From Propioniciclava sinopodophylli (lineage in GTDB: Bacteria > Actinomycetota > Actinomycetes > Propionibacteriales > Propionibacteriaceae), in the NCBI RefSeq assembly GCF_004324755.1, contig NZ_SDMQ01000001.1, forward strand, positions 1 through 64,000: a DNA stretch of 64,000 nucleotides. Reading direction: 5' to 3'. The notes under the pieces were generated by a model, which saw nothing but the letters and a program-made list of their open reading frames with translations, was not told the DNA's origin and did no database searches. This document shows, in pieces, positions 284 through 14,849 of this stretch. Within the stretch, counting starts at the first letter, position 1. The number at the start of each line of letters is the position of its first letter. Both the position numbers and the translations under genes were made by a program.

Positions 284-634
284 ATGAAGGACGCGTTGCT
301 TCGCACACTGACCTCCGCCGCGGCTGGCCTGTTCGTGTACGTTCTGTCAGGACTCATCAGCGGACTGGACCAGTGGGGCAAAGCTGGCATCAGCGGCGCG
401 GCATTCATCGTTGTGCTGATCGGCAGCATCCTGATCGGACGAGCTTCGCCCGACAAGGGCTCCCCGACAACTGGACCCAGATACTTCTCCGGCCTGCGTG
501 GGAAGAACGTAACGATCAAGGGAGTGCGAGGACCAGCTCTTCTGGAATCGGGCGAATTCTTGAGTGACGTCCACGCAAAGCAATCCATAAACATCGATGA
601 TGTGGGATCTAGCAGTAACCCGCAGCAGCCATGA
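284..634 (+). CDS. Small two-TM membrane protein, first gene of a three-gene module
   Basis: This is a 116-aa protein of unknown family. Residues about 8-28 and 35-52 are two hydrophobic segments separated by a short loop with a Trp and a Gly-rich turn, so a two-helix membrane hairpin is likely. The remaining C-terminal part is polar and beta-prone (GKNVTIKGVRG and onward) and presumably cytoplasmic. The ATG of the next gene overlaps its stop (ATGA, 631-634), so the two are translationally coupled. A two-TM protein coupled to an NTPase-like gene and a TPR gene resembles membrane-effector arrangements in defence loci; that role is inference. No database family is recognised. Confidence 0.7.
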   Translation: MKDALLRTLTSAAAGLFVYVLSGLISGLDQWGKAGISGAAFIVVLIGSILIGRASPDKGSPTTGPRYFSGLRGKNVTIKGVRGPALLESGEFLSDVHAKQSINIDDVGSSSNPQQP

Positions 635-1461
635 GGAACTCACATGACATCTTCAACTGGGCTAACGAGGGAGAAGCCATCCGCTCATTTCTAGTTGGAA
701 ATCACTCAGTTCTACACGTTTTCGCGGGACACTCCTCAAAGCCTGATCAGTTCTTGAATCTCGTGGAGCGCATTGCGCAGGAACTATGGGCAGAGGATCA
801 CCGGATCTGTCGCGTGGACCACCTCGCGATGCCAACCGCCACCCCTGTAGCCGTCCTGTCTCACATCGCGGAGTCGCTCGGACTTTCTGACATGAAGGAA
901 AACAATGGCCGAGCAGTTGGCGGCAACTTCATGTCGGATCTCCGATCCCTTCGAGACATCACCATCTCAGGAAACCATATCACAATTGCATCGGGTGTCG
1001 ATGTAGAAGTCTTGACCTTTTGGCTGCGCGCGTTCTGTCAAGCCGCGAAGGCCGGTCTGGACCTTTCCAAGAACGTCATTGTAGTTCAAGCTTGCGAAAT
1101 CCTCACCGTCGAGGAGAAACGCGCCTTTGGCCGAAACGTTTGGGAATCGGCGCTCTGCCCCTTGCTGCCGGCCGGGTTGAAAGTAGTATTCTCGTTCAAC
1201 CCAGATGATGCTAGAGAAGCGGATTGTCCTTGGCCACCCCCAAGGGATGCCGTCCTTCAGTTGCCCAGTTTTTTCGACGCTTCAATAGAGTTGGTTCAAC
1301 AGATTGGCGAGTGGCTGATCGCCCATGGGCATGCGTCAACAGTTGAGACAGCACACGAATCGGCGAAAATGCTGGTCGCAAGTTCACGGACTGTCTCCGA
1401 CCTATACGACAGGTTGGCCATGCTGGAAATCACTGGGCACGCAAGGGGCTCTGCGACATGA
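631..1461 (+). CDS. Degenerate P-loop NTPase-like protein (STAND/ORC-like fold suspected)
   Basis: This is a 276-aa protein. Residues about 27-60 have the strand-loop-helix pattern of an AAA/STAND N-terminal core, but the loop where GxxxxGK[ST] would sit reads AGHSSKPD, so Walker A is absent. Residues about 144-156 (KNVIVVQACEILTVEE) sit where Walker B would be, with only partial acidic residues. It may therefore be an inactive NTPase scaffold. The gene is coupled to both neighbours by 4-bp ATGA overlaps. Its base composition is clearly lower in GC than the rest of the window, a sign of horizontal transfer. Family assignment is inference. Confidence 0.6.
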   Translation: MRNSHDIFNWANEGEAIRSFLVGNHSVLHVFAGHSSKPDQFLNLVERIAQELWAEDHRICRVDHLAMPTATPVAVLSHIAESLGLSDMKENNGRAVGGNFMSDLRSLRDITISGNHITIASGVDVEVLTFWLRAFCQAAKAGLDLSKNVIVVQACEILTVEEKRAFGRNVWESALCPLLPAGLKVVFSFNPDDAREADCPWPPPRDAVLQLPSFFDASIELVQQIGEWLIAHGHASTVETAHESAKMLVASSRTVSDLYDRLAMLEITGHARGSAT

Positions 1462-2534
1462 CTTCTGTCCTTGATGAGCTTGCTGGCATTGACGAACTGG
1501 CACTGCTAGCAGCGGCCCCCAGCCTGACGGACGAGATGGCCTCCCGCGCATTCGCTGAGTTCCACTTTTCGCGCAAGATTATCGATGCCCTCAATAGCCT
1601 GGGGTTTATCGTTAGCGCCGGTTCAGAATTCCGCTTGAGTGAGGAACTTCGGGCAAAGATCATATCGCGCCAGTCCGGCGGGTCTCTGTGGAAGCAAGCC
1701 AATACTCACTTCTATGCTCGCGCGAGCGAAGCGCAGTATGGCGAGTCTCTTCCCGAGTATTTAGTCACGGGACCAGGCCTGGCGTACCATGGCCTCGAGG
1801 TAAACACGGAAATTGGCGAGCAGGCGTACCGCGACGTGGCTCACATCGACTCCCTCCGAGTGAGCCTTGAAGCACGGCGGCTGGGGTTCGAACAAGCTTC
1901 TCGAGGATTGATTCATTTTGAGAGCGTCGGCCTGCTGTTTCTTCAAGGAATGACAATCTATCGGCTAGGATCACGAACTGAAGCCATAGGGGTTCTTCGC
2001 AGGGTTGCGCACGCGCACGAGGATTCCCGGGAGGTCGCAGTTGCTCAACATCTCGTAGGATATTGGGATTGCATGAGTCGTGGCGGTATTGGAGGTACGA
2101 AATCAGCGCAAGAGCTTCTTAGAGCAAGCCATAAGAGCGCAGCAAAAAGACAGGACCAATGGCACCTCGCCCATGTGAAGCACAGCATGGCGTTATGCAT
2201 GCTCAAGTCCAAACCACAGGAACGCCGCGGTCCTATTCAGCTGCTTCGGGCAAGCCTGGAGTTAACCCGTGAAATCGGGGACCGCTTCGGGGAGGCCAAG
2301 GTGCTTCACAGCCTCGGGCAAGCGTTGGCTCGTGATCCAGGATCGAAGAAGGAGGCCCGACTTCTGATGAACCAAAGTCTCTCCTTGGGCGTTGAACTGG
2401 GGTATATCCGGCATCAGGCCCTAGTGCTTCAGTCACTCGTCAAAATTGAAGATCGGCCCGCGCGTCGCGCTGACTTGGAGAGGCGATTGCGGCGCCTGGA
2501 AGCGTCTCTGCCCATCCGGGAGGGGGCTTGCTAG
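1458..2534 (+). CDS. Winged-helix plus TPR-solenoid protein, third gene of the module
   Basis: This is a 358-aa protein. Residues about 28-65 look like a winged-helix unit (RKIIDALNSLGFI then a hairpin with EFRLSEEL). Residues about 125-345 are alternating amphipathic helices with TPR-like spacing (for example GDRFGEAKVLHSLGQALARD), consistent with a helical-repeat sensor or scaffold. wHTH followed by TPR is the C-terminal half of many STAND proteins; here it is a separate ORF coupled by ATGA to the NTPase-like gene. Together the three genes look like a split STAND-type system. Low GC relative to flanks supports import. The specific ligand cannot be told. Confidence 0.6.
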   Translation: MTSVLDELAGIDELALLAAAPSLTDEMASRAFAEFHFSRKIIDALNSLGFIVSAGSEFRLSEELRAKIISRQSGGSLWKQANTHFYARASEAQYGESLPEYLVTGPGLAYHGLEVNTEIGEQAYRDVAHIDSLRVSLEARRLGFEQASRGLIHFESVGLLFLQGMTIYRLGSRTEAIGVLRRVAHAHEDSREVAVAQHLVGYWDCMSRGGIGGTKSAQELLRASHKSAAKRQDQWHLAHVKHSMALCMLKSKPQERRGPIQLLRASLELTREIGDRFGEAKVLHSLGQALARDPGSKKEARLLMNQSLSLGVELGYIRHQALVLQSLVKIEDRPARRADLERRLRRLEASLPIREGAC

Positions 2535-2742: not shown

Positions 2743-2800
2743 TGGAGCTGTCGTGGTCACCGGCCAGATGATGGAGCTGTCGTGGTCACCGGCCAGATGA
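2743..2800 (+). repeat. Perfect 29-bp tandem duplication
   Basis: The 29-bp unit beginning TGGAGCTGTCGTGGTCACC occurs at 2743-2771 and again at 2772-2800 without a mismatch. It covers the possible upstream start codons of the next gene. A recent slippage or recombination event is the simplest explanation. Confidence 0.9.
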
Positions 2801-2850
2801 AGGCAACTCGGGTGGCACTGCCGCAGCGCGGTGGCCAGTATCCTGCTGAA

Positions 2851-3471
2851 GTGTCTACACACGTTGTGACCGACGACCTGCCGGACGAGCTTGCTGATCG
2901 CCTCCGCGTGGAGCGGCGTGTGGCGGTCGACACCGAGACGACGGGGCTGAACTGGCGTGAAGACACCTTGGAGCTCTGCCAGATCTACTCCCCCGGCACC
3001 GGCGCCATCCTGGTCCGAAGGTCGTGGCGACGCCCAACTAACCTCTTGGATCTGCTCGAGGACTCCCGCGTGACCAAAGTGCTGCACTACGCGCCGTTCG
3101 ATCTGCGGTTCCTAGAGTCGACGTGGGGTGTGCGTTCGGAGTCAGTCTTCTGCACCAAGGCCGCCTCCAAGCTGCTAGATCCGCTCCTCCCCCCGGCGGA
3201 ACACAGCCTGAGTGCGCTCCTAGCCCGCCACTTCGGCATTCGGCTGGACAAGGGCGCAGTCCGGGTGAGCAACTGGGCAGCCCCCGACCTCACGCTCGAC
3301 CAGATAGCCTACGCGGCTGCCGACGTGTCCTCTCTGCTGATGCTGGCGGACAGCCAAGAGGCGCGGCTACGGGAACGGGGTCTGGCAGGAGATTTCGCAG
3401 CGATCTGCACCTACATGCCCTTGGACGCGCACCTAGAGATAAGCGGCATCCCGAACCCGCTGGCGTACTAG
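2851..3471 (+). CDS. RNase D-like 3'-5' exonuclease
   Basis: This is a 206-aa single-domain DEDD exonuclease. Exo I is VAVDTETTGLNW (the DxE pair), Exo II is KVLHYAPFDLRFL, and Exo III is YAAADVSSLL with the conserved Asp; a Tyr before it fits the DEDDy subtype. There is no HRDC domain, so it is much shorter than classical RNase D and matches the short actinobacterial type. I chose the GTG at 2851 because the fold starts there; an ATG at 2797 inside the 29-bp duplication is the alternative. Its stop shares the sequence CTAG with the stop of the convergent HIRAN gene. Substrate (RNA or DNA) cannot be told. Confidence 0.8.
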   Translation: MSTHVVTDDLPDELADRLRVERRVAVDTETTGLNWREDTLELCQIYSPGTGAILVRRSWRRPTNLLDLLEDSRVTKVLHYAPFDLRFLESTWGVRSESVFCTKAASKLLDPLLPPAEHSLSALLARHFGIRLDKGAVRVSNWAAPDLTLDQIAYAAADVSSLLMLADSQEARLRERGLAGDFAAICTYMPLDAHLEISGIPNPLAY

Positions 3472-4280
3472 CTGGCCAAAGCCTGCCAGCGACCCTCACG
3501 ATCGAACGCGAAGCCACTCGGGACCGGCACGTTCAAGTCGAGGACGAGGCGCAGGTGGAATGGAGCGTTGGGGCTGCCAATCCGATGGACCGTCGCGTGA
3601 CAGGGTGCGTTCTGAACAAGCTGTCGCACGCCGGATGACAAGACACGGGGCACCCATCCGACCGGAACTCCGCTTGCAGTAACGAGAACCGCGTTTGGAT
3701 CCTCGGGGTTACGCAGCTCAGGCTCAAGCAGCACCCCGTCACCGACGCGAAGGCCCCTCAGTGCTTCTTCCTGTTCCTGGCGCGTGACTCGGATGGAGCG
3801 TCCCGGCAGAACCCGTTCGTCTTCGGGGATGTGACTGACGCCGTTCGCCAGGAATCGTGCCTGGGCCCGGCCGCAAGTCACCCTCGGTATCGGCATGAAC
3901 TGCAGAGTGTCACCAGCTCGGTCCCCACCCGACTCGACGATCTGCTCCCATGGGGTAGCCAGCGCGGTAGTCAACCCGAGCGTGTCCATGTACTGGGCAT
4001 AGTCCGGCCGCTCAGGCGACATAACTCGCTGGCTAAAGACCGCCGGGATCTGACGACTCTCGTAGCGCCGGTGGAGATCAGTCATGCCCGGGAGAGGCCG
4101 AAATCCGTTCACCTCAGCTGCGGCTCGGGTGTATGAGAACGCGAACGCCCCGCCTTCGCGGATGAAGCGGCCAATGGGGACGATCTCACGCGTCACTGGA
4201 TGTTGCCAGAGCACGAGCAGGTCGTTGACGTCGTGCTGAGGAGTGGACGTACCCCTGTCAAGCACCGCCGTTGATCGCAT
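3468..4280 (-). CDS. HipA N-domain-like / HIRAN-domain protein
   Basis: This is a 270-aa protein. Residues about 20-105 resemble the N-terminal subdomain of HipA (GRFIREGGAFAFSYT, a LPGMTDLHRRY stretch, and RPDYAQYMDTLGL). Residues about 140-255 match a HIRAN domain, with core NPEDPNAVLVTASGVPVGWV; HIRAN domains of HLTF/Rad5 proteins bind DNA ends. It follows the HipA-like kinase with a 23-bp overlap and has a strong Shine-Dalgarno (AAGGAGG about 10 nt upstream). In HipBST systems a small HipA-N-like protein (HipS) restrains a HipT kinase, so this protein may be the regulatory or sensing partner. That role is inference. Confidence 0.65.
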   Translation of the reverse strand: MRSTAVLDRGTSTPQHDVNDLLVLWQHPVTREIVPIGRFIREGGAFAFSYTRAAAEVNGFRPLPGMTDLHRRYESRQIPAVFSQRVMSPERPDYAQYMDTLGLTTALATPWEQIVESGGDRAGDTLQFMPIPRVTCGRAQARFLANGVSHIPEDERVLPGRSIRVTRQEQEEALRGLRVGDGVLLEPELRNPEDPNAVLVTASGVPVGWVPRVLSSGVRQLVQNAPCHATVHRIGSPNAPFHLRLVLDLNVPVPSGFAFDREGRWQALAS

Positions 4281-5229
4281 CTCGGAGCCTCCTTAAGTTG
4301 ACATCGAGAACCCTGCTTGCGAACGTAGCTGCCGTCTCCGACATTCCGGACACCCCAGTCGCCAACACGCCGTGCAGTTCGCTCAGATCCAGACTGGCCA
4401 GCTGCGCATGCCACCATTGTGCGGCCTCGGGCGTGCACAACCTAACGGCCGCCGCCGCATGGTCGACCAATGTGGGCGCCGGGGGGGCGTGTTCGAAGCG
4501 ATGCGCTGTGCCCTTGGCCGCCCAAGCCTCTAGACCCGCCGGCTCACGCAGCAGCGTCTCCCTGCCCTCTTCCCGCAGATTGTATCCGAGGCTTCCACCA
4601 TGGTCATACGAGGGGGCCAGCCTCTCGGGCTGATCTGTGAGCCGTGGCCGCAGGACGGCCCAGTTCTGTTCGTGCCTGTCGCGATTAGCTACGAGCGCAT
4701 CCAGGATCAGGAAGCCTGCGAAGACGTCGAAGCCGGTGCACCCGACCGGCCCGTCGAAGGAGGGTGGCGGATGAACGTCACGCAGCACCTGGTTGATGTT
4801 GGACAAGTTGTGTCCAGGACGCCGTACATGGGGCCGGCGGGGATCGCGGGCCTTGTTGTTGTCCGTTTGCCGGATGTACCCGGGCACACATGCTGCCTCA
4901 AGAACGACTCCTCCTTCGTTTAGGTCGCAACCCGCCGGAACGACTGATCGGGACAAGGAGCCTGGCACTCCGTTCCGTATACAGAGTCGCGTCTCCGCGC
5001 ACGGGACCCTGAGCGCCATGGAAGCCTGGGTGGTTACGACCTCGGCCCAGTCCTCACCTTGAGCAACCCCGTTGGAAGGCACGTGGACGCTCTTGTGGAG
5101 CCACAGCTGTCCGGTATCGGGCGCCTTCAGCCAGACGACTTGGTTGGTGCCCGTTGTCTCCACGTGGCGTACGGGCCAACGGGACACGTCGATGCGTTCT
5201 GTAGCCCAGCGGGGGGTGCGCGGGTCCAC
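4258..5229 (-). CDS. HipA-like serine/threonine kinase
   Basis: This 323-aa protein corresponds to the HipA C-terminal kinase fold without the HipA N-subdomain. The catalytic loop is NRDRHEQNW (Asp184), the metal-binding DFG equivalent is SYDHGG (Asp209), and Lys46 in WLHKS is a candidate ATP-binding lysine. HipA/HipT toxins phosphorylate tRNA synthetases and arrest growth; the target here is unknown. The GTG start lies 3 bp after hsdR and the gene overlaps the HIRAN gene, so it is probably expressed from the hsd operon. There is no HipB-type helix-turn-helix antitoxin nearby, which is unusual for the family. Confidence 0.75.
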   Translation of the reverse strand: MDPRTPRWATERIDVSRWPVRHVETTGTNQVVWLKAPDTGQLWLHKSVHVPSNGVAQGEDWAEVVTTQASMALRVPCAETRLCIRNGVPGSLSRSVVPAGCDLNEGGVVLEAACVPGYIRQTDNNKARDPRRPHVRRPGHNLSNINQVLRDVHPPPSFDGPVGCTGFDVFAGFLILDALVANRDRHEQNWAVLRPRLTDQPERLAPSYDHGGSLGYNLREEGRETLLREPAGLEAWAAKGTAHRFEHAPPAPTLVDHAAAAVRLCTPEAAQWWHAQLASLDLSELHGVLATGVSGMSETAATFASRVLDVNLRRLRDAINGGA

Positions 5230-5232
5230 CGT

Positions 5233-8200
5233 TCACACCCCGTCTGCCATGACCTCGGCCTGTTGGAGGATGAGTTGCGTGGCCGTGGGTTCCTGGTCGG
5301 GTGGGTACCCGTGGATGAGCAGTAGTCGCTTGATGCGCGTCCTGAGCTTGGCGCGCACGGTCTCTTTGACCTGCCAGTCGGTCTTGGCGTCATTGCGGAC
5401 GATCTCGGTGAGTTCGTGGGCGATGGCCTTGAGCTTGTCGTCCTGCATGGCCGAACGTGCCGACTCGTTGCTTCCAAGGGCGTCGTAAAAGGCGAGCTCG
5501 TTCTCGGTGAGCCCAGTCTCCTCCCCTCGCTTGCGCTGGGCCCGGATCGCCTTGGCGATCTCGACGATTTCAGCGATGACCTGGGCTGCGTCGATGGTCC
5601 GGTTCTGGTACCGGTTCAGGGCTTCGGCGAGCATCGCGGAGAACTTGCGGCCGGCGACGATGTTGCGTTGGCCGATGACCTTGACCTCGTTCGAGATCAG
5701 TCGGCGGACGGCTTCGAGCTGCAGGTTCTGGTTGTCGGAGGCCTCGAACTTCTTGCGGAACTCATCATCGATGACAGAGAGGTCGGGCTTGTCCAGGCCT
5801 GCCTCGGCGAAGATGTCGATGACCCCACCGCCGGCCATGTGTTCGCTGACGATCTGCCGCACCGCGGTGTCGAGGGCGGGCTCACCGGTCGGCGTCCGGT
5901 CGATGGTCTCGATCTTCGCGATGGACTGGCGCACGGCGTCGAAGAACGCCACGTCATCCCTGATCGCCGTTGCCTCCGCCGACGTCGGCACCAGGGCGAA
6001 CAGGCGCTTCAGGCGTCCGGTGTGCGCCATGAACCGCTTCTTCAGCGACGGCACCTCCGAGGTGTTCATGTCGAACTCGCCGACGCTCACGTCGCTGGCG
6101 GACCAGTCCTGGCCACGCTCCGACTCCAACAGGTGGTCGACGGCATGCGTCACGGCGTACACGAACGCCTTCGCATCACCCGACCCCAGCACGGTGACCC
6201 AGTCGATGCCGTGCAGCAGGTCACTGACGATGGAGTGCTCGGCGAGCATTTCGGGGATCGCGGCCTGCCGGACGTCCTCGCCGATGGCCCGGTCCTGCTT
6301 GTCACGGTCGGTGTAGGTCGCAAGTGCGTCCTTGAGGTTCTCGGCGATCCCGATGTAGTCGACGATCAGCCCGGAGGGCTTGTCCTTGAACGTGCGGTTC
6401 ACCCGCGTGATCGCCTGCATCAGCCCGGCGCTGCGCATCGGCTTGTCGACGTACATGGTGTGCATCGGCGGGGAGTCGAAGCCGGTCAGCCACATGTCCC
6501 GCACGATCACCAACTCCAGGACATCCGACGTGTTCGACGCCCGCGCCTTCATCGCCCGACGTTCCTGCTTGTTCCGGACGTGCGGCTGGTAGGAGACTGG
6601 GTCGGTGGCGTTGCCCGTGATCACGACCTTCACGACACCCTCGTCATCGTTATCACTGTGCCACTCCGGTCGCAGGGCGATCATCGCCGCGTACAGGTCG
6701 ACGGCGATCCGCCGCGACATCGTGACGATCATGCCCTTGCCGGCCAGAACGTCGCGGCGGGCCTCCCAGTGCTCGATGATGTCAGCGGCCAACTGCTTGA
6801 CCCGCTCCTCGGAGCCGACGATCGCCTCGACCTTCGTCCACTTCGACTTCAACCGTTCGCTGATCTCGGTCTCGGAGCCGGTGGTCGCGTCCTCGAACTC
6901 GTCATCGATCTGCTCGCGCGCGTCGCCGGGCAGCTCCACCTTGGCCAGGCGGGGCTCGTAGAACACTTTGACGGTGACGCCGTCCTCGATGGCCTGAGTC
7001 ATGTCGTAAACATCGATGTACTCGCCGAAGATCTCCGCGGTCGAGCGGTCCTTCTCATCGATCGGCGTGCCTGTGAACCCAATGAAGGACGCCTCGGGCA
7101 GGGCGTCACGGACGTTACGCGCGAACCCGTCGATCACGTCGTAGTTGGACCGGTGCGCCTCATCGACCATCACCACGATGTTTGACCGGGCCGACAGCAG
7201 CGGGAACCTCCGGCCGGCGTCGCGGTCCTCCTTCGACAAGCCGAACTTCTGCAACGTGGTGAAGACGATGCCACCCGACTCGCGTCCCGCCAGCAATTCC
7301 TTCAAGTGGGCGCGGGTCTCGGCCTGAACCGGCGGCTCCGGCAAGGGCGATCCGGCCTTGGCGGGGGCGAACGTCTCATCAAACAGTTGTTCGTCGAGGT
7401 CGTTGCGGTCAGTGACCACCACCACCGTCGGGTTCGACATGCCCGGATGGCGCATGATCTTGCCGGCGTAGTACGCCATCTCCAGCGACTTTCCCGACCC
7501 CTGGGTGTGCCACACCACCCCGATCCGGCCGTCGGTCTCCATCGATTCCAACGTCTGGTCAACCGCCTTGTTGACCGCCCAGTACTGGTGATACTTCGCG
7601 ACCGCCTTGCGCGTGTCCGCACCGTCGCCGAACGTCGCCACGAAGTGCCGGCACAGGTCGAAGAACACATCGAGCCGGAACATGCCCCGGGTCAGGACCT
7701 CGATCGCCGGGATCCGATGTCCGTCGACATCTTTCGGGTCACGCCGCGCCCCATCGATGGTCTTCCAAGCAGCCCAGTGGTTCCACGGCGCCGAGAACGA
7801 TCCTGCACGCGCGTCCAACCCGTCGGACACGACCGCGATCTGGTTCCACTTGAACACCTCCGGGATCTGCGACCGGTAGGTCTGCAACTGCCGGAACGCA
7901 CCATCCACACGCGCGTACGACTTACCCGGCCGCTTGATCTCGAAGATCGCCAGCGGCAGACCGTTGACGAACAAGACGATGTCCGGGCGGCGCGTGCGCT
8001 TGGGGCCCTCGATACTGAACTGGTTCACCGCCACCAGGTCGTTGTTCTCTGGGTCATCCCAATCGACCAGCCAAGCCCGATCTGACCTCAGACGGCCGGC
8101 GTCGTCGCGGTATTCGACCGGCACCCCTTGGACCAAGTGGCGGTAGGCGTTCCAGTTCTCGGACTCGATCAAAGGTGACTCCGTCCGCCGCACAGTCGCC

Positions 8201-8424
8201 ACCACATCCGCCACCGCCTCCGCAGGAAGCTGCGGATTCAGCTGGCGGACACCATCCGTCAGACGACCTGCCAGTACAGCCTCCCGGTAGTCAGCCCGCT
8301 CCGCTTCGTGCTCGCCCGGTGCGACGTGCGGGCCGTGCACGTGGGTCCAGCCCAACTCGGTCAGGATCTCGAGCACCCAGCGCTCCAGCGCATCTTCGGT
8401 CAGACCGTTCGCACCTGACATCAC
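5233..8424 (-). CDS. hsdR: Type I restriction enzyme, R (motor/nuclease) subunit
   Basis: This 1063-aa protein has full family length. The N-terminal nuclease carries RPDIVLFVNG...IFEIKRPG (PD...ExK). The translocase has Walker A TQGSGKS, a VMVDEAHRSNYD DEAH box, a GFTGTP motif and a C-terminal helicase lobe with DMWLTGFDSP and QAITRVNR. It hydrolyses ATP to translocate DNA and cuts unmethylated invading DNA as part of the HsdR2M2S complex. It overlaps hsdS by 4 bp (ATGA) and is followed after 3 bp by the HipA-like kinase. All motifs look intact. Confidence 0.95.
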   Translation of the reverse strand: MMSGANGLTEDALERWVLEILTELGWTHVHGPHVAPGEHEAERADYREAVLAGRLTDGVRQLNPQLPAEAVADVVATVRRTESPLIESENWNAYRHLVQGVPVEYRDDAGRLRSDRAWLVDWDDPENNDLVAVNQFSIEGPKRTRRPDIVLFVNGLPLAIFEIKRPGKSYARVDGAFRQLQTYRSQIPEVFKWNQIAVVSDGLDARAGSFSAPWNHWAAWKTIDGARRDPKDVDGHRIPAIEVLTRGMFRLDVFFDLCRHFVATFGDGADTRKAVAKYHQYWAVNKAVDQTLESMETDGRIGVVWHTQGSGKSLEMAYYAGKIMRHPGMSNPTVVVVTDRNDLDEQLFDETFAPAKAGSPLPEPPVQAETRAHLKELLAGRESGGIVFTTLQKFGLSKEDRDAGRRFPLLSARSNIVVMVDEAHRSNYDVIDGFARNVRDALPEASFIGFTGTPIDEKDRSTAEIFGEYIDVYDMTQAIEDGVTVKVFYEPRLAKVELPGDAREQIDDEFEDATTGSETEISERLKSKWTKVEAIVGSEERVKQLAADIIEHWEARRDVLAGKGMIVTMSRRIAVDLYAAMIALRPEWHSDNDDEGVVKVVITGNATDPVSYQPHVRNKQERRAMKARASNTSDVLELVIVRDMWLTGFDSPPMHTMYVDKPMRSAGLMQAITRVNRTFKDKPSGLIVDYIGIAENLKDALATYTDRDKQDRAIGEDVRQAAIPEMLAEHSIVSDLLHGIDWVTVLGSGDAKAFVYAVTHAVDHLLESERGQDWSASDVSVGEFDMNTSEVPSLKKRFMAHTGRLKRLFALVPTSAEATAIRDDVAFFDAVRQSIAKIETIDRTPTGEPALDTAVRQIVSEHMAGGGVIDIFAEAGLDKPDLSVIDDEFRKKFEASDNQNLQLEAVRRLISNEVKVIGQRNIVAGRKFSAMLAEALNRYQNRTIDAAQVIAEIVEIAKAIRAQRKRGEETGLTENELAFYDALGSNESARSAMQDDKLKAIAHELTEIVRNDAKTDWQVKETVRAKLRTRIKRLLLIHGYPPDQEPTATQLILQQAEVMADGV

Positions 8425-9575
8425 GCCACCTCGAAGTCCTCGGACACCCTGACCCGGCCCGACATCAGCAACGGCAACAATTCATCGCGGGCCCTAACCA
8501 GGTCCTCCGACTCACGCGTCAACTCGAGGATCGAGTCGTCCAGAACCGCCAGAGTGGACTCAACGTCGTCACACTCCACCCAAGGCACCATCAGGTTCTC
8601 CATGCCAGCCCTGTTGACGGAGGCGAACACGGTGCCCGTTCCTTGGTGCATGTCCCACAGTTGGCTATCCACCAGGAGTGCCTGGAGCAGAGTCGCCGGG
8701 CGTCCGACCGCACGCAGGGCGCCCACGCCACGGCCAAGAGCGGTGTCCTCGGTCGCGACGTTCACCTCACCAACGGGCGCTCGCACAGAAACCAAGATGT
8801 CGCCCGCTCCCGCCATACGCGAAGGCTGGGATGTCCAGACCCGGCGCCCCGGGAAGCGCCATCCGAAGTCGCGAGTCCCTTGGTAGAAGACAGTGCCCTC
8901 ACCTGACTCGTTATAGGTATCACCGGGAGGAGATTGCCCCATCGTGATCGCAGCAACGTCTACCAGGCGCTCTCGTTGTTCGCCGTCCCAGTGTCGAGCG
9001 AAGATCGCCAGCTGAAGGTTCGCCGTGTACCGATTGACATCTCGATTGACCTCGATCAGGTCGTCCAAGGCACCCAAGAGGGCGCCGATCCGCCGCTGGT
9101 CTTCCACCGGGGGCAGGTCGACCGGCAGCGATGCGAGAATGCTGGTGTTGAGGTTCAGCATTGTGGCACCTACCGCGTGGCGGTATAGCCACTCGTGCGT
9201 CCAAGGAGTTGAAAGCCAATAGGCCAGCCAGCGGTGGTCCGCGCCAGAGCCAGGCCGAACCAAGAGGCATCCCGTGCCGCAAAGCCACCCCGCCTCGCGC
9301 TGGGTGATCCGGGCGCAACGGGTGATGTCGCCCCGACGTGAGTAGACGATGTCACCGACCTTCATTCTATGACGAGACAGCCTTACGGCATCCGCTTCGG
9401 TGATCCGGGCAATCCCAGACTCTTCAATGCGTCCTGACGCGATGTTCGCCGGCATCACCACCGGGACGCCGGCAGCCACATAGTCCTCGGCATGCAACTG
9501 GCTCCCAAACGGGCCAGTCTGGATGACCCCATCCGCACAGACCTGCCCGAGTGTTACGGATGTCCAATCAGCCAT
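8421..9575 (-). CDS. hsdS: Type I restriction-modification, S (specificity) subunit
   Basis: This 384-aa protein has two target-recognition halves. Each begins with the usual WxxVxLGxV-like pattern (DWTSVTLGQV near the N-terminus and LVDVAAITMGQSPPG near the middle) and ends in a conserved helix (LPPVEDQRRIGALLGALDDL in the first half). It sets the DNA sequence that is methylated and protected. I chose the ATG at 9575 (MADWTS); a start three codons upstream is possible. It overlaps hsdM by 8 bp and hsdR by 4 bp. TRDs diverge fast, so the recognition site cannot be predicted. Confidence 0.93.
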   Translation of the reverse strand: MADWTSVTLGQVCADGVIQTGPFGSQLHAEDYVAAGVPVVMPANIASGRIEESGIARITEADAVRLSRHRMKVGDIVYSRRGDITRCARITQREAGWLCGTGCLLVRPGSGADHRWLAYWLSTPWTHEWLYRHAVGATMLNLNTSILASLPVDLPPVEDQRRIGALLGALDDLIEVNRDVNRYTANLQLAIFARHWDGEQRERLVDVAAITMGQSPPGDTYNESGEGTVFYQGTRDFGWRFPGRRVWTSQPSRMAGAGDILVSVRAPVGEVNVATEDTALGRGVGALRAVGRPATLLQALLVDSQLWDMHQGTGTVFASVNRAGMENLMVPWVECDDVESTLAVLDDSILELTRESEDLVRARDELLPLLMSGRVRVSEDFEVA

Positions 9576-11172
9576 CCGTGCCACTCACCAACGCGCCCAG
9601 CGCCGTCGTCACCCGTCGTTGAAGCAGTTCTCGCCTCGCGAACCCCTCTCGGATCTGGGTTGCGAGTCGGGACACCTTCTCGTCCAGTGGCTCGCTGTCG
9701 TCTTCCGCCTCCGCGCTGCCCACATAGCGTCCAGGCGTGAGGACGTAGTCGTGGCCGGCGATGTCAGCGGCTCTGGTCGCCCTGCAGAATGCGGGCTGGT
9801 CGACGTAAGTCGTGCTGGTCGAAGTTCCGCGCCAGGCGTGGTAGGTGTCCGCGATCCGCAGGATGTCGTCCTGGCTGAAGGCACGGAGAGTGCGCCCTTC
9901 CATGTGGCCAATCTGCCGGGCGTCGATGAAGAGAGCCTCGCCGCGCCGGTCGCGGCTGGCGGGCAGTCCGTTGGCGTGCCCGATCTTGTTCTTGGTGAGG
10001 AACCACAGGCAGACAGGGATTTGCGTGCCGTAGAAGAGTTGAGGTGGTAGTGCGACGATGCACTCGACGACGTCCGCCTCGACCATGGCCCTGCGGATCT
10101 CGCCCTCGCCGTTCTGTTGCGACGACAGGGAACCGTTCGCGAGGACAGTCCCGACGGTGCCAGTGGGTGCGCAGTGATGGAGGAAGTGCTGCAGCCAGGC
10201 GTAGTTCGCGTTCTGCGGCGGCGGCGTCCCGTACTTCCACCGCACATCGCCCTTGAGGCGTTCCCCAGCCCAGTTGCTGTCATTGAACGGCGGGTTCGCG
10301 ATCACGAAGTCTGCGCGCAGGTCAGGGTGAGCATCAGCGTGGAATGAGTCGGCCCACTCCGGTCCGAGGTTGCCATCGATACCGCGAACGGCGAGGTTCA
10401 TCTTCGCCAGCCGCCAGGTGGTGGGGTTGGACTCCTGCCCAAACACAGAGATGTCGTTGCGACTACCGCCGTGGGCGGCGACGAACTTGTCGGCCTGGAC
10501 GAACATGCCACCCGACCCACAGGCGGGGTCGAGGACGCGGCCGTGGTAGGGCTGGAGCATCTCGACCAGGAGTTGAACGATGGTGCGAGGCGTGTAGAAC
10601 TCGCCGGCCTTCTTGCCTTCCTTAGAGGCGAATTGTCCCAGGAAGTACTCGTACACCCGGCCCAGCACGTCGAGGTCCTTGAACTCTTCCGACGCGAGGT
10701 CTTGGCGGGAGAACGTGTCGATCAAGCCGCCGATGGCCTCGGCGGACAGTTCACGCTGGGTGTAGTTCTTCGGTAGGACGCCGCGGAGGCTCGGGTTGTC
10801 GCGTTCGATGGCTTCCATGGCGGCGTCGACGCGCTTGCCGATGTCGGGCTGCTTGGCGGCGTTGCGCAGGTCCTGCCAGCGGTGGCCTTGCGGGATCCAG
10901 AAGACGCCTTCGGCGGTGTACTCGTCGCGGTCCTCCAGCACAGACTGCTTCGCGGCCTCGCTCGGCATGAAGTACTCCGAGGTGGGATCGCTGACGAGCC
11001 GCCGGAGTTGGTCGTGCCGGACCATGAACGTGTCCGAGACGTACTTGAGGAAGATGAGGCCCAGCACGACGTGCTTGTAAACGGCGGAGTCCATCTTCCC
11101 GCGTAGCTCGTCTGCGGCGTCCCATAGAGTCGCCTCCAGGCTCTTGGATGATTGCGCCGCCTTCTTCGCCAC
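9568..11172 (-). CDS. hsdM: Type I restriction-modification, M (adenine methyltransferase) subunit
   Basis: This 534-aa N6-adenine methyltransferase has an HsdM N-terminal helical domain (LWDAADELRGKMDSAVYKHV and onward). Its AdoMet motif I is LDPACGSGGMF and its catalytic motif IV is NPPFND. It is the first gene of the hsdM-hsdS-hsdR-kinase-HIRAN series. The GTG at 11172 is preceded by a GGAGGCGGAGAAGA ribosome-binding region and begins the conserved VAKKAAQSS stretch. Its promoter must lie in the 55 bp shared with the divergent integrase gene. Confidence 0.94.
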   Translation of the reverse strand: MAKKAAQSSKSLEATLWDAADELRGKMDSAVYKHVVLGLIFLKYVSDTFMVRHDQLRRLVSDPTSEYFMPSEAAKQSVLEDRDEYTAEGVFWIPQGHRWQDLRNAAKQPDIGKRVDAAMEAIERDNPSLRGVLPKNYTQRELSAEAIGGLIDTFSRQDLASEEFKDLDVLGRVYEYFLGQFASKEGKKAGEFYTPRTIVQLLVEMLQPYHGRVLDPACGSGGMFVQADKFVAAHGGSRNDISVFGQESNPTTWRLAKMNLAVRGIDGNLGPEWADSFHADAHPDLRADFVIANPPFNDSNWAGERLKGDVRWKYGTPPPQNANYAWLQHFLHHCAPTGTVGTVLANGSLSSQQNGEGEIRRAMVEADVVECIVALPPQLFYGTQIPVCLWFLTKNKIGHANGLPASRDRRGEALFIDARQIGHMEGRTLRAFSQDDILRIADTYHAWRGTSTSTTYVDQPAFCRATRAADIAGHDYVLTPGRYVGSAEAEDDSEPLDEKVSRLATQIREGFARRELLQRRVTTALGALVSGTDG

Positions 11173-11227: not shown

Positions 11228-12019
11228 GTGAGCACGCTCGGAGTCGTGTTCTCCGGTCCGGACCTGGTTCGGCAGGGGCTGGCTGAGGGTTCGGTGAAGC
11301 GGTACCGCGCGAGCCTGTCGTCCTTCTTCGGTTGGTGCGTGCGCGAGAAGTACGTCCTCGTCAATCCGGTCTCCTCGACCAGGGCTCCACGCTCCTCGGA
11401 CGAACCGACCGAGATGCTGCCGTTGGCGGAGGAGGAGCTCGAGGTGGTCTGGGAGCGGTGGGCGGCCAGGAACCGACGCCTGGCCGACATCATGCTGCTG
11501 CTCGGCTGGACCGGCCTGCGGTGGGCCGAGGCTCGCGCGGTCAGGGTTGGCGATGTGATGCAGGTGCCGACACCGGGGCTGGTCATCAGCCGTTCCAACC
11601 CTGAGGGGGTCGGGCTCAAGTCGACCAAGGGACGGCGTAGCCGGCTCGTCCCCCTGGCCGATCGGGTGCTGGACATCGTGGCCGAGCTGAGCAAGGACAA
11701 GGCGGCGACCGACCTGCTGTGCACCACCGACACCGGGAGCCCACTGCACCGCTCAGCCGTGGTGCGCACGCTTGCCTGGGAGGCCACTGCTGCTGGCCGC
11801 CGTATCCACGACCTGCGCCACACGGCTGCCTGCCTGTGGTTGGCCCGCGGGGTGGACCCGGGGACCGTTCAGGCGTGGCTGGGGCACGAGTCGATTGCGA
11901 CCACCAACCGGTATCTGCACTACCTCGGCACCGGGGCCCATCGGGCCGGTCTGGAGCGCCTCAACGCGCCGCGGGGCAATGCGGGGGCAATGGGGACAAG
12001 CGAAACGGACACCCAATAA
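11228..12019 (+). CDS. Tyrosine recombinase (integrase), probably N-terminally short
   Basis: This 263-aa protein has the catalytic domain intact: Arg in TGLRWAEAR, HxxR in IHDLRHTAAC, then LGHESIATTNRYLHY with the second His and the Tyr nucleophile. Phage-type integrases are usually 350-400 aa; the arm-binding domain and part of the core-binding domain are missing, and the ORF begins directly next to the hsdM promoter. It may be a simplified recombinase or an integrase truncated when the hsd operon was acquired. It ends 17 bp from the 3' end of tRNA-Ala, the classic arrangement for tRNA-targeting islands. Confidence 0.88.
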   Translation: MSTLGVVFSGPDLVRQGLAEGSVKRYRASLSSFFGWCVREKYVLVNPVSSTRAPRSSDEPTEMLPLAEEELEVVWERWAARNRRLADIMLLLGWTGLRWAEARAVRVGDVMQVPTPGLVISRSNPEGVGLKSTKGRRSRLVPLADRVLDIVAELSKDKAATDLLCTTDTGSPLHRSAVVRTLAWEATAAGRRIHDLRHTAACLWLARGVDPGTVQAWLGHESIATTNRYLHYLGTGAHRAGLERLNAPRGNAGAMGTSETDTQ

Positions 12020-12030: not shown

Positions 12031-12035
12031 CCTTG

Positions 12036-12108
12036 TGGAGCTAAGGGGATTCGAACCCCTGACCTTCTCATTGCGAACGAGACGCGCTACCAACTGCGCC
12101 ATAGCCCC
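12036..12108 (-). tRNA. tRNA-Ala (anticodon CGC)
   Basis: On the minus strand the acceptor arms GGGGCTA and TAGCTCC pair with discriminator A, the D arm is GCGC...GCGC, the anticodon loop TTCGCAA gives CGC, and the T arm is AGGGG-TTCGAAT-CCCCT. The CCA is not encoded. The 3' end faces the integrase and is the presumed attachment site. Confidence 0.96.
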
Positions 12109-12182: not shown

Positions 12183-12812
12183 ATGTATCAGCCCGTCCCC
12201 CTGTCCGCTCCTTTCGGCATGGTGTTGGATCTGATCATGCACGGGCAGCCTCCCGCCGATGCGTCGGCGTCCCTGTGGGATCGCGCGGCCGAGGCGCACG
12301 CCCGGTGGCGGGCTGGCGACCGTCTCGCCCTCGACGACCTCGTGCGCACCTTGACCCCCGCGCTGTGGCACACGGCGCGCAGCTACGGCTTGTCGGAGGA
12401 CGCCGCGAAGGACGTCCTGCAGAACGCTTGGGTCCGCCTGGTCCGCGACCCCGGGCAGGTGCGGGATTCCCAGGCCGTCGCCGGCTGGCTGCTCACGACG
12501 ACCCGCCGTCTCGCGTGGGCGTCCACCCGTGCCCGCGAGGTGCCGGTCGAGGAGGTCGCCCCCACCGCACCCGACAGCTCCCCCACCCCCGAGGAAGCCG
12601 CCATCGCCGGGTTCGAGGCGTCCCGCCTCTGGGGGGCGGTCAACTCGCTCAACGCCCGCTGCCAGCGGCTGTTGCGCATCGTCGCGTTCGCCGAACGCCC
12701 CGACTACGCCGCCCTGTCGGCCGACACCGGCATGCCGGTCGGCAGCATCGGCCCCACCCGGCGCCGCTGCCTCGACAAGCTGCGCCTCCTGCTCGAAGGG
12801 GAACTCGCATGA
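12183..12812 (+). CDS. ECF-type RNA polymerase sigma factor of the protease operon
   Basis: This protein is up to 209 aa. Sigma region 2 is seen at about residues 55-110 (LTPALWHTARSYGLSEDAAK, DVLQNAWVRL, VAGWLLTTTRRLAW) and region 4 near residues 155-200 (LLRIVAFAERPDYAALS then MPVGSIGPTRRRCLDKL). The region 4 helix-turn-helix matches the usual ECF pattern. The start is uncertain: GGGGGGAGG sits too close to the ATG at 12183, and ATGs at 12219 and 12237 are alternatives. It overlaps the next gene by 4 bp (ATGA), so it is co-translated with the protease operon and presumably transcribes it. Confidence 0.88.
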   Translation: MYQPVPLSAPFGMVLDLIMHGQPPADASASLWDRAAEAHARWRAGDRLALDDLVRTLTPALWHTARSYGLSEDAAKDVLQNAWVRLVRDPGQVRDSQAVAGWLLTTTRRLAWASTRAREVPVEEVAPTAPDSSPTPEEAAIAGFEASRLWGAVNSLNARCQRLLRIVAFAERPDYAALSADTGMPVGSIGPTRRRCLDKLRLLLEGELA

Positions 12813-13288
12813 CCCAGCAGCCCACCCACGACGCGCTCGTCGACGCCGTCCGCGCCGCGTGGCAGCGTTGGGACCCGCCGCCACCCGACCTGGCCGACAC
12901 CATCCTCGTCGGGCTGGCGATGACCGACCTGGACGCCGACTACGAGCTGCTCACCCTGGTCAGTCGGCACGACCACCTCGCCGGGACGCGCGCCACGCCC
13001 GCCGACACGCAGCGCGTGCTCATCGAGTTCCGCTCCGGTGAGCTGACGGTGCTGGTCCGGGTCAGCCAGGACCAGCCCGCCGGCGCCCACCGCCTCGACG
13101 GGTGGGTCACCCCCGCGACGGGTGGCGAGGTCACCGTGGTGCAGGGCGACCGGTCCACCACGGTCGACCTCGACACGAACGGTCGCTTCGCCGTCCCGGG
13201 CACCGGCCCGGGGCTCACCCAACTCATCGTCCGGCCGGCGACGCACGCCGAGGCGTCCGACTTCCGCACGACCCTGTTCGAGATCTGA
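12809..13288 (+). CDS. Small protein coupled to the ECF sigma factor (possible regulator)
   Basis: This is a 159-aa protein without a membrane segment. The N-terminal part is helical (TQQPTHDALVDAVRAAWQRW). The C-terminal half is beta-rich (HRLDGWVTPATGGEVTVVQ, TTVDLDTNGRFAVPGTGPG), resembling the small beta-sandwich of carboxypeptidase-regulatory-like domains. The ATGA overlap with the sigma gene makes an anti-sigma or sensor role plausible, but it lacks the membrane helix and zinc motif of standard anti-sigma proteins. Family not recognised with certainty. Confidence 0.6.
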   Translation: MTQQPTHDALVDAVRAAWQRWDPPPPDLADTILVGLAMTDLDADYELLTLVSRHDHLAGTRATPADTQRVLIEFRSGELTVLVRVSQDQPAGAHRLDGWVTPATGGEVTVVQGDRSTTVDLDTNGRFAVPGTGPGLTQLIVRPATHAEASDFRTTLFEI

Positions 13289-13303
13289 CCCCAGGAGGCC
13301 CCC

Positions 13304-14845
13304 ATGAAGCCCGACCGCGAGCACCCCGAACCCGACCCCTACGACCGTGAACCCCGGCTCCCGTCCGCGCGCGTGCTGCGACGCCTGCGCGCCCGCGTCC
13401 TCGATCCGCTGCGGGACGTGGTCCTGGCCGGGCAGGACGTCCGGCCCACGGCGTACGTACCCGGCTCGGTCCTCGTCGGCCAGCACGACGACTCCCAGAT
13501 CGACGCGCTGAGGAAGGTGGCGGCCGAGCTGGGGTGGCGCCTGACCACCTCGCCCGATCAGGTGCACCAGACCCGTCCGTGGCGGCGCACCATCGCCCTG
13601 CAGATCGAGCCGCGGGAGGGCATGGTCGCCAGCGCGCCGGACGCGTGGGCCCTGCTTCAGCACCTGCGCCTGCTGGACTCCGACCTCGCCCAGCGCGCGT
13701 GCCTGAACCACGTGCTCACCCTGTCCCCCTACACCGAGTCGGCCCCGTACACCGAGTCCGCCCCGTACACCGAGTCGGCCCCGTACACCGAGTCCGCACC
13801 CGTCGCCGGGTACGGTGTCCCCGGCCGCGGCGGACGCCAGCCGGTCGCCTTCGTCGGCCGCCCACCCGTGCGCCGACCCGACGTGAAGCGTCGTCCCGTT
13901 GTGGCGATCCTGGACTCGGGCTGCGGGGAGCACCCCTGGCTCGGCACGCAGGCCCCGATCCCGCCCGACCCGGTGGTGCGCACCGATGTCAGGATCGACG
14001 GGGGCCTGCTGGGGCTCGAACCGAACTCCGGCCCCGAGTTCCTCCCCGACACGGTCGGCCCACTCGACGGGATCCTCGACGCGTATGCCGGGCACGGCAC
14101 GTTCAGCGCCGGACTGGTCCACCAGGCCGCCCCCGACGCCGACGTCGTGAGCTGGCGCATCCTCCCCGCCGAGGGTGCGATGGTCGAGCAGGACCTCCTC
14201 GACGCCCTCGACGACCTCGCCGAACTGGTCCGCCGCGCGCGCACGGGCGACCCCGACGGCCTGGACGTCGACATCGTGAGCCTGTCCGTCGGCTACTACC
14301 ACGAGCTGCCCGACGACCCGAAGTTCGACCTCCCCCTGTGGGAGTCGCTGCAGGCCCTGCTCAAGCTCGGGGTCGTGGTGGTCTGCGCGGCCGGCAACGA
14401 CGCGACCTCGCGCCCGCGGTTCCCGGCAGCGTTCGGCCCGTGGGACGACGGCAGGGGCCCCATCACCTGGGACGCCTCCCTCGCCCCGCTGGTCAGCGCC
14501 GGCGCCCTCAACCCCAACGGGACCTGCGACGCCCTGTTCAGCAACGTCGGGCCATGGGTCCGGGCCCACGTCCACGGCGCGGCGCTCGTCAGCACCATGC
14601 CGACGACCTTCCAGGGCGGGCTGCAGGCCACGGCGGCCACCCAAGCCTTCGGACGCCCGCGGGCCACCATCGACCCCGACGACTACTCCTCCGGCTTCGG
14701 CGTCTGGAGTGGCACCTCGTTCGCCGCGCCCCTGCTGGCGGGGCAGCTCGCCGCCGCGCTGATGGAGGCCGACCGCGCATCCGCGGATCCGGTCGAACGC
14801 GCCCGCACCCTGGTGGCCGAGACCACGGGAGTGGTGCCAGAGTAG
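13304..14845 (+). CDS. Subtilisin-like S8 serine protease, apparently cytoplasmic
   Basis: This 513-aa protein has the full catalytic triad: Asp204 in VAILDSGCG, His264 in GHGTFSAG and Ser472 in SGTSFAAP, with the oxyanion Asn in AAGND. About 170 residues precede the protease domain. There is no signal peptide, which is unusual for subtilases and suggests intracellular action. The linker at residues 143-166 is four exact YTESAP repeats. An AGGAGG ribosome-binding site precedes the ATG at 13304, and the next gene starts 4 bp after its stop. Substrate unknown; within this operon it may activate or be activated by the CHAT or papain protease. Confidence 0.92.
   Translation: MKPDREHPEPDPYDREPRLPSARVLRRLRARVLDPLRDVVLAGQDVRPTAYVPGSVLVGQHDDSQIDALRKVAAELGWRLTTSPDQVHQTRPWRRTIALQIEPREGMVASAPDAWALLQHLRLLDSDLAQRACLNHVLTLSPYTESAPYTESAPYTESAPYTESAPVAGYGVPGRGGRQPVAFVGRPPVRRPDVKRRPVVAILDSGCGEHPWLGTQAPIPPDPVVRTDVRIDGGLLGLEPNSGPEFLPDTVGPLDGILDAYAGHGTFSAGLVHQAAPDADVVSWRILPAEGAMVEQDLLDALDDLAELVRRARTGDPDGLDVDIVSLSVGYYHELPDDPKFDLPLWESLQALLKLGVVVVCAAGNDATSRPRFPAAFGPWDDGRGPITWDASLAPLVSAGALNPNGTCDALFSNVGPWVRAHVHGAALVSTMPTTFQGGLQATAATQAFGRPRATIDPDDYSSGFGVWSGTSFAAPLLAGQLAAALMEADRASADPVERARTLVAETTGVVPE
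13730..13801 (+). repeat. Four 18-bp tandem repeats encoding YTESAP
   Basis: Each unit is TACACCGAGTCSGCCCCG-like, at 13730-13747, 13748-13765, 13766-13783 and 13784-13801, with one or two synonymous differences. It lies in the linker before the S8 catalytic domain and could serve as a flexible linker or a multi-copy cleavage or recognition site. Confidence 0.9.
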
Positions 14846-14849
14846 GGGC

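What the first reader, a model, noticed from the sequence alone, without database searches (positions are those of the whole stretch)
3468..11172. HipA-like kinase and HipA-N/HIRAN protein appended to a type I RM operon
hsdM, hsdS, hsdR, a HipT-sized kinase and a HipA-N/HIRAN fusion run in one direction with overlaps or gaps of only a few bp. The split of HipA into a kinase and an N-domain partner resembles HipBST, but the HipB repressor is missing and the N-domain carries a DNA-end-binding-type HIRAN domain. The kinase could be an abortive-infection arm triggered when the RM complex cuts or stalls.
Basis: partly seen in the sequence, partly recalled or inferred. Interest (0 to 1): 0.78.

Follow-up and report, generated by a model that had tools for sequence, protein, structure and literature searches.

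The report
Kinase–HIRAN pair behind restriction operon
Bacterial genes for a DNA-cutting anti-virus system are followed, in the same operon, by a known but untested toxin-like kinase and its likely inhibitor; the pair turns out to have been placed next to DNA-cutting systems many separate times, so it probably is an add-on backup defence rather than a new kind of machine.

Summary
The five-gene run is real: hsdM–hsdS–hsdR–kinase–HIRAN protein, one strand, every junction an overlap or a 3-nt gap. The last two genes are a known module: hipIN (HipI kinase, HipN = HipS-like + HIRAN; Gerdes 2021), also catalogued as PADLOC candidate PDC-M03. Predicted structures confirm a CtkA/HipT-like kinase with intact catalytic residues and a HipS+HIRAN fusion; HipB is absent. 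The proposed DNA-end-sensing abortive infection was published for hipIN in 2021. 'DNA-end-binding type HIRAN' is weakened: most HLTF contact residues are replaced. Most hipIN modules stand alone, but same-strand adjacency to a type I or type IIG restriction gene occurs in 15 of 97 loci versus 1 of 80 control toxin-gene loci, in several lineages independently; two more lie inside DISARM. The closest hsdMSR operons lack hipIN and carry other or unknown genes after hsdR. I read it as a plug-in back-up kinase toxin–antitoxin on a tRNA-Ala island; whether the restriction complex triggers it is open. New member of a known kind; interest moderate.

The parts
9568..11172 (-). hsdM, type I DNA methyltransferase (start GTG 11172)
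   Evidence: HsdM_N 1.5e-25, N6_Mtase 9e-105; MTase_I 1.7e-194; start region
8421..9584 (-). hsdS, specificity subunit
   Evidence: Methylase_S 1.3e-11; Specificity_I 1.3e-56
5233..8424 (-). hsdR, restriction/translocase subunit, 1063 aa
   Evidence: HSDR_N, SWI2_SNF2, T1RH-like_C; TIGR00348 567 bits
4258..5229 (-). hipI-type kinase (PDC-M03A), 323 aa, catalytic residues intact
   Evidence: PDLC04342 1.1e-103; K46, D184, N189, D209 invariant in 64 homologues; model pLDDT 95, CtkA Z 26.7, HipT Z 17.7, HipA Z 16.5
3468..4280 (-). hipN-type protein (PDC-M03B): HipS-like domain (residues 18-132) + HIRAN domain (135-265)
   Evidence: PDLC04347 1.1e-72; PF08797 1.6e-06; model pLDDT 91, HipS Z 11.8/11.4, HLTF HIRAN Z 8.5
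2782..3471 (+). diDNase (DEDDy deoxydinucleotide-specific nuclease), convergent with hipN
   Evidence: best solved structures are diDNases 9qrf 7e-42, 9f7g 1e-33, 9f7d 5e-28; active-site and C-terminal Tyr pattern; same gene beside hipIN in other loci
11228..12019 (+). XerC-like tyrosine integrase, divergent from hsdM
   Evidence: Phage_integrase 3e-19; XerC model below cut-off
12035..12108 (-). tRNA-Ala(CGC), probable integration site of the island
   Evidence: ARAGORN
12037..12077 (.). 3' part of tRNA-Ala repeated (41 bp, 95%) near the end of another contig of the same genome: candidate att pair
   Evidence: G000:C7:313-353

Best explanation
A hipIN-type two-component kinase toxin–antitoxin carried as the 3' accessory cargo of a type I restriction-modification operon on a tRNA-Ala island. 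HipI is an active Ser/Thr kinase. HipN holds it inactive through its HipS-like domain, which occupies the place of HipA N-subdomain 1, and uses the HIRAN domain as the sensor arm. When infection disturbs HipN (a nucleic-acid product, a DNA end or a phage protein), the kinase is released and stops growth, probably by phosphorylating a translation factor. It acts as a second line when restriction fails, and also works without RM. The convergent diDNase is an accessory of the same cassette. Shown here: the parts, their folds, intact catalytic residues, the order and the recurrent adjacency. Inferred: toxicity, neutralisation, trigger, target and defence function.
For: PADLOC PDC-M03A/B 1e-103 and 1e-72. 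The HIRAN partner is directly downstream in 85/85 loci. Kinase model fits CtkA/HipT/HipA, with K46, D184, N189, D209 in 64/64 homologues. HipN residues 18-132 fit HipS (Z 11.8, 11.4) and HipA N-subdomain (Z 10.8); 135-265 fit HIRAN. HipS silences HipT in solved complexes (PMC9325769). The pair is cargo of a tailless Vibrio phage next to the integrase and occurs on 21 of 23 matched viral contigs, with none of the RM genes searched for in the 6-kb flanks. Adjacent RM gene in 15/97 hipIN loci vs 1/80 controls, p = 0.0009; inside DISARM in L071/L088. Closest hsdMSR operons lack hipIN; after hsdR two of five carry a defence-like gene directly, two an unknown gene, one nothing on that strand.
Against: No experiment. 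Toxicity of any HipI and neutralisation by any HipN are undocumented in the papers I could read. The closest solved relative of the kinase is CtkA, not a TA toxin. Most hipIN loci have no RM neighbour within about 10 kb. Residues through which HLTF HIRAN binds DNA are mostly not kept.
Confidence: 0.62

Rival explanations
1. RM-coupled alarm, working like PrrC: HipN or HipI contacts the RM complex or senses DNA it has cut, so the kinase fires when HsdR cuts, stalls or is inhibited by a phage anti-restriction protein. RM and hipIN are one functional unit.
For: Start codon 3 nt after the hsdR stop; in L100, L104 and L114 hipIN sits between hsdS and hsdR; adjacency is enriched and arose several times, with type I, type IIG and DISARM, all of which use methylation. 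PrrC, latent within a type I RM complex and activated by a phage anti-restriction peptide, is a proven precedent (PMC2610378).
Against: Most hipIN loci and all viral ones scanned lack RM. Gene order relative to hsd genes varies (M-S-R-KH, R-S-KH-M, M-KH-S-R, M-S-KH-R). The window's nearest kinase (L010/L122) has no RM neighbour. Five nearest hsdMSR operons have no hipIN.
Confidence: 0.2
2. Passenger: an ordinary addiction-type TA that landed behind hsdR by island recombination, kept for island stability and co-transcribed only by read-through, with no shared function.
For: Island with integrase and tRNA-Ala repeat; hipIN and the RM operon each occur alone; other genes occupy the same 3' slot in relatives; plasmid and phage carriage.
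Against: Same-strand adjacency to RM genes is enriched over other toxin genes (15/97 vs 1/80), including insertion inside operons without separating them.
Confidence: 0.14

Closest known systems
hipIN modules (Gerdes, Baerentsen and Brodersen 2021, PMC8262856)
   Same: Short HipA-family kinase without N-subdomain 1 followed by a HipS-like + HIRAN protein; actinobacterial members already listed; same abortive-infection hypothesis.
   Different: That paper's main text does not mention restriction; here the module is the tail of an hsdMSR operon and has a convergent diDNase.
PDC-M03 (PADLOC-DB phage-defence candidate)
   Same: Both proteins match M03A and M03B at 1e-103 and 1e-72.
   Different: A catalogue entry; I could not read a description of it (the Payne 2024 preprint on embedded defences is not held).
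diDNase with HipA/HIRAN neighbours (PMC11706625)
   Same: About a third of diDNase genes sit next to a HipA and a HIRAN gene; RM type I genes were noticed near some.
   Different: That paper centres on the nuclease; it does not measure how often the kinase pair adjoins RM genes.
HipBST (PMC9325769, PMC10627512)
   Same: Split HipA: kinase core plus a HipS-fold partner.
   Different: No HipB; kinase first rather than last; HIRAN domain added; kinase closer to CtkA in sequence and fold.
Toxins embedded in type I RM operons: PrrC (PMC2610378) and DarTG2 (PMC12255303)
   Same: A toxin or TA pair encoded among hsd genes as a back-up.
   Different: Different enzymes (tRNA nuclease, DNA ADP-ribosyltransferase); here the pair follows hsdR, whereas DarTG2 lies between hsdS and hsdR.

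Membership tests
hipIN (HipI kinase + HipN) | Short kinase lacking N-subdomain 1, with core Hip motifs intact | tested here: met
   323 aa; K46, D184, N189, D209 invariant in 64 homologues; model aligns to HipT and to the HipA core
[quoted passage not shown]
hipIN (HipI kinase + HipN) | Partner neutralises the kinase (antitoxin) | not testable with these tools
   Only the HipS fold supports it
PDC-M03 | M03A and M03B matches in adjacent genes | tested here: met
HipBST | HipB-type helix-turn-helix gene in the operon, order B-S-T | tested here: not met
   None of the five genes has such a domain; order is kinase then partner
HLTF/Rad5-type HIRAN DNA-end binder | HIRAN fold | tested here: met
   PF08797 above cut-off; HLTF Z 8.5
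HLTF/Rad5-type HIRAN DNA-end binder | HLTF contact residues R71, Y72, N91, Y93, D94, H110 (residue list partly from own knowledge) | tested here: inconclusive
   N91 and D94 kept (N191, D194); Y93 to E193, H110 to W209 (no His among 65 homologues); R71/Y72 to F143/L144 by hand alignment. Other residues could bind.
diDNase | DEDDy catalytic set, Thr and Leu wedge, conserved Phe, C-terminal Tyr | tested here: met
   D50, E52, T53, L56, F106, D107, Y177, D181, Y229 invariant in the seven-row alignment; top structure hits are diDNases
Type I restriction-modification | HsdM, HsdS and HsdR all present, full length and in one operon | tested here: met
   methylation and restriction activity not tested
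PrrC-type RM-gated toxin | Toxin physically held and gated by the RM complex | not testable with these tools
   Only gene position is analogous

The most novel reading that the evidence does not exclude
The HipN HIRAN domain senses very short DNA products (deoxydinucleotides or 3' ends) made when invading DNA is cut by the RM enzyme and degraded; binding frees the kinase, and the convergent diDNase is the dedicated off-switch that destroys the ligand. RM, kinase pair and diDNase would then form a signalling defence with a DNA-fragment messenger.
Probability: 0.06. Interest if true: 0.82.

Novelty: new member of a known kind. Interest (0 to 1): 0.4.

Why it matters
hipIN/PDC-M03 is catalogued as a TA or defence candidate, but I found no reported test of it. 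Its repeated, independent placement beside type I RM, type IIG RM and (once) DISARM suggests what it backs up, and gives natural paired designs (with and without RM, with and without diDNase). If HipN links nucleic-acid state to a HipA-type kinase, it would be a new trigger for an old toxin fold. The slot after hsdR also looks like a place where cargo genes are exchanged.

Tried and rejected
HipBST membership: rejected (no HipB, other order). New system without precedent: rejected by PADLOC and the 2021 and 2025 papers. RM adjacency as pure coincidence: rejected for the family as a whole, not for this single locus. RM as an obligate partner: rejected (most loci lack it). Empty-site comparison in a congener: the right flank is syntenic, but C7 and the relative share only the 41 bp, so the empty site is not shown. 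Payne 2024 preprint not held. Promoter/terminator scan uninformative for a high-GC organism. Profile comparison of HipN with HipI: no relation. Complex prediction of HipI with HipN was not available.

Full report
WHAT IS THERE. The window is the first 64 kb of contig C11 of a 3.07-Mb genome. On the minus strand, hsdM (11172-9568), hsdS (9584-8421), hsdR (8424-5233), a HipA-like kinase (5229-4258) and a HIRAN protein (4280-3468) follow one another with overlaps or a 3-nt gap. The HIRAN gene has AAGGAGG 7 nt before its ATG, inside the kinase gene. A plus-strand exonuclease gene (2782-3471) meets the HIRAN gene tail to tail with a shared CTAG. On the other side a XerC-like integrase (11228-12019) abuts tRNA-Ala (12035-12108). 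A 41-bp copy (95%) of the tRNA 3' part lies at C7:313-353, near the end of another contig, which fits a tRNA-integrated island running off C11 (inference).

WHAT THE TWO EXTRA GENES ARE. PADLOC names them PDC-M03A (1.1e-103) and PDC-M03B (1.1e-72). Gerdes et al. [quoted passage not shown] My tests agree. The kinase model (pLDDT 95) fits CtkA (Z 26.7), HipT (17.7) and HipA (16.5); K46, D184, N189 and D209 are present in all 64 aligned homologues. The HipN model (pLDDT 91) fits HipS/HipA N-subdomain over residues 18-132 (Z 10.8-11.8) and HLTF HIRAN over 135-265 (Z 8.5). HipS blocks ATP binding of HipT in a solved complex (PMC9325769), which makes neutralisation plausible but does not show it.

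HIRAN SENSOR. Against HLTF (aligned stretch; contact residues partly from my own knowledge, R71/Y72 aligned by hand), N91 and D94 are kept, Y93 is E, H110 is W, R71/Y72 are F/L. Across 65 HipN proteins N191 is nearly invariant but position 209 is never His. Gerdes et al. also noted that actinobacterial HipN lacks the motifs. DNA-end binding is therefore unproven, not excluded.

THE MISSED THIRD GENE. The 2782-3471 product is a diDNase: its best solved relatives are diDNases (7e-42 and weaker), and the DEDDy residues, Thr/Leu wedge, conserved Phe and C-terminal Tyr are invariant in seven homologues. It adjoins hipIN in eight further loci (L002, L043, L044, L122, L125, L127, L128, L130), tail to tail in most. 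The NAR 2025 paper (PMC11706625) found HipA+HIRAN beside about a third of diDNase genes and RM type I near some.

IS THE RM LINK REAL? In the same order 20 of 392 genomes hold the kinase. Among 80 loci drawn from genome contigs plus 19 actinobacterial loci (97 after removing two duplicates), 15 have a type I or type IIG restriction gene adjacent on the same strand (type IIG identified, hsd genes checked). Orders vary: window M-S-R-K-H; L082 (and plasmid L005) R-S-K-H-M; L101 M-K-H-S-R; L100, L104 and L114 M-S-K-H-R; type IIG directly upstream in L042, L067, L123, L124 and L134. L071 and L088 (one MAG) have the pair inside DISARM. Controls: 40 ordinary HipA and 40 AbiEii loci of the same order gave 3 with an RM-like gene in the roughly 20-kb stretch and 1 adjacent (L168); Fisher p = 0.0009. 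HsdM density in 34 genomes (24 in about 124 Mb) predicts about 0.3 type I neighbours in 80 loci; 12 were seen. Caveats: the 80 loci are the best matches to the query, not a random sample; controls come from one order only; some contigs are short. On a kinase tree the type I label needs at least 7 changes (5 forced by starred branches) and type IIG 3, so placement recurred.

IS THE LINK OBLIGATE? No. Most hipIN loci have no RM neighbour. The window's nearest kinase (L010/L122) has the diDNase but no RM. Phages and viral contigs carry the pair without the RM genes searched for. Conversely the five nearest hsdMSR operons (HsdR 58-81% identical) lack hipIN; after hsdR they carry an AriAB-like ATPase (L249), an unknown gene and then a ThsB-like TIR gene (L250), a PDC-S60-like gene (L251), an unknown gene (L248) or nothing on that strand (L247). 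The position after hsdR looks like a cargo slot, from five cases only.

MECHANISM. Most likely (0.62) a plug-in kinase toxin–antitoxin that backs up restriction. An RM-gated alarm in the manner of PrrC (PMC2610378) is the main rival (0.20); a passenger addiction module is third (0.14). TA pairs inside type I RM operons are known (DarTG2, PMC12255303), so the arrangement is a new member of a known kind.

VERDICT. Observation confirmed; interpretation partly supported and mostly anticipated in the literature; interest 0.4.

Noticed in passing
L071 and L088 (one actinomycete MAG): hipIN pair inside a DISARM operon (drmD, drmMI, kinase, HIRAN, drmA and more).
   Followed up: partly
L042, L067, L123, L124, L134: hipIN directly behind a single-chain type IIG restriction-methyltransferase; in L123 that gene is split over more than one reading frame.
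   Followed up: partly
L247-L251: Close relatives of this hsdMSR operon carry different genes after hsdR (AriAB-like ATPase, unknown gene then ThsB-like TIR, PDC-S60-like, unknown): a possible exchangeable cargo slot.
   Followed up: partly
L063:7756-9894: A GmrSD type IV enzyme gene lies between hsdS and hipIN, so two add-ons share one type I operon.
   Followed up: no
window 12183-17267 (+): Sigma-70 region 2 ORF, an ORF without a family, a subtilase and a TPR-CHAT protein in a row right of tRNA-Ala: possible protease-based conflict operon.
   Followed up: no
window 631-1461 and 1458-2534 (+): Overlapping ORF pair on the island with no Pfam family and only a weak TPR match.
   Followed up: no
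L004:9953-11646: A tailless Vibrio phage carries the kinase-HIRAN pair as cargo next to its integrase.
   Followed up: no
L168: Control locus: an AbiEii gene lies among hsd genes, another toxin placed in a type I RM operon.
   Followed up: no
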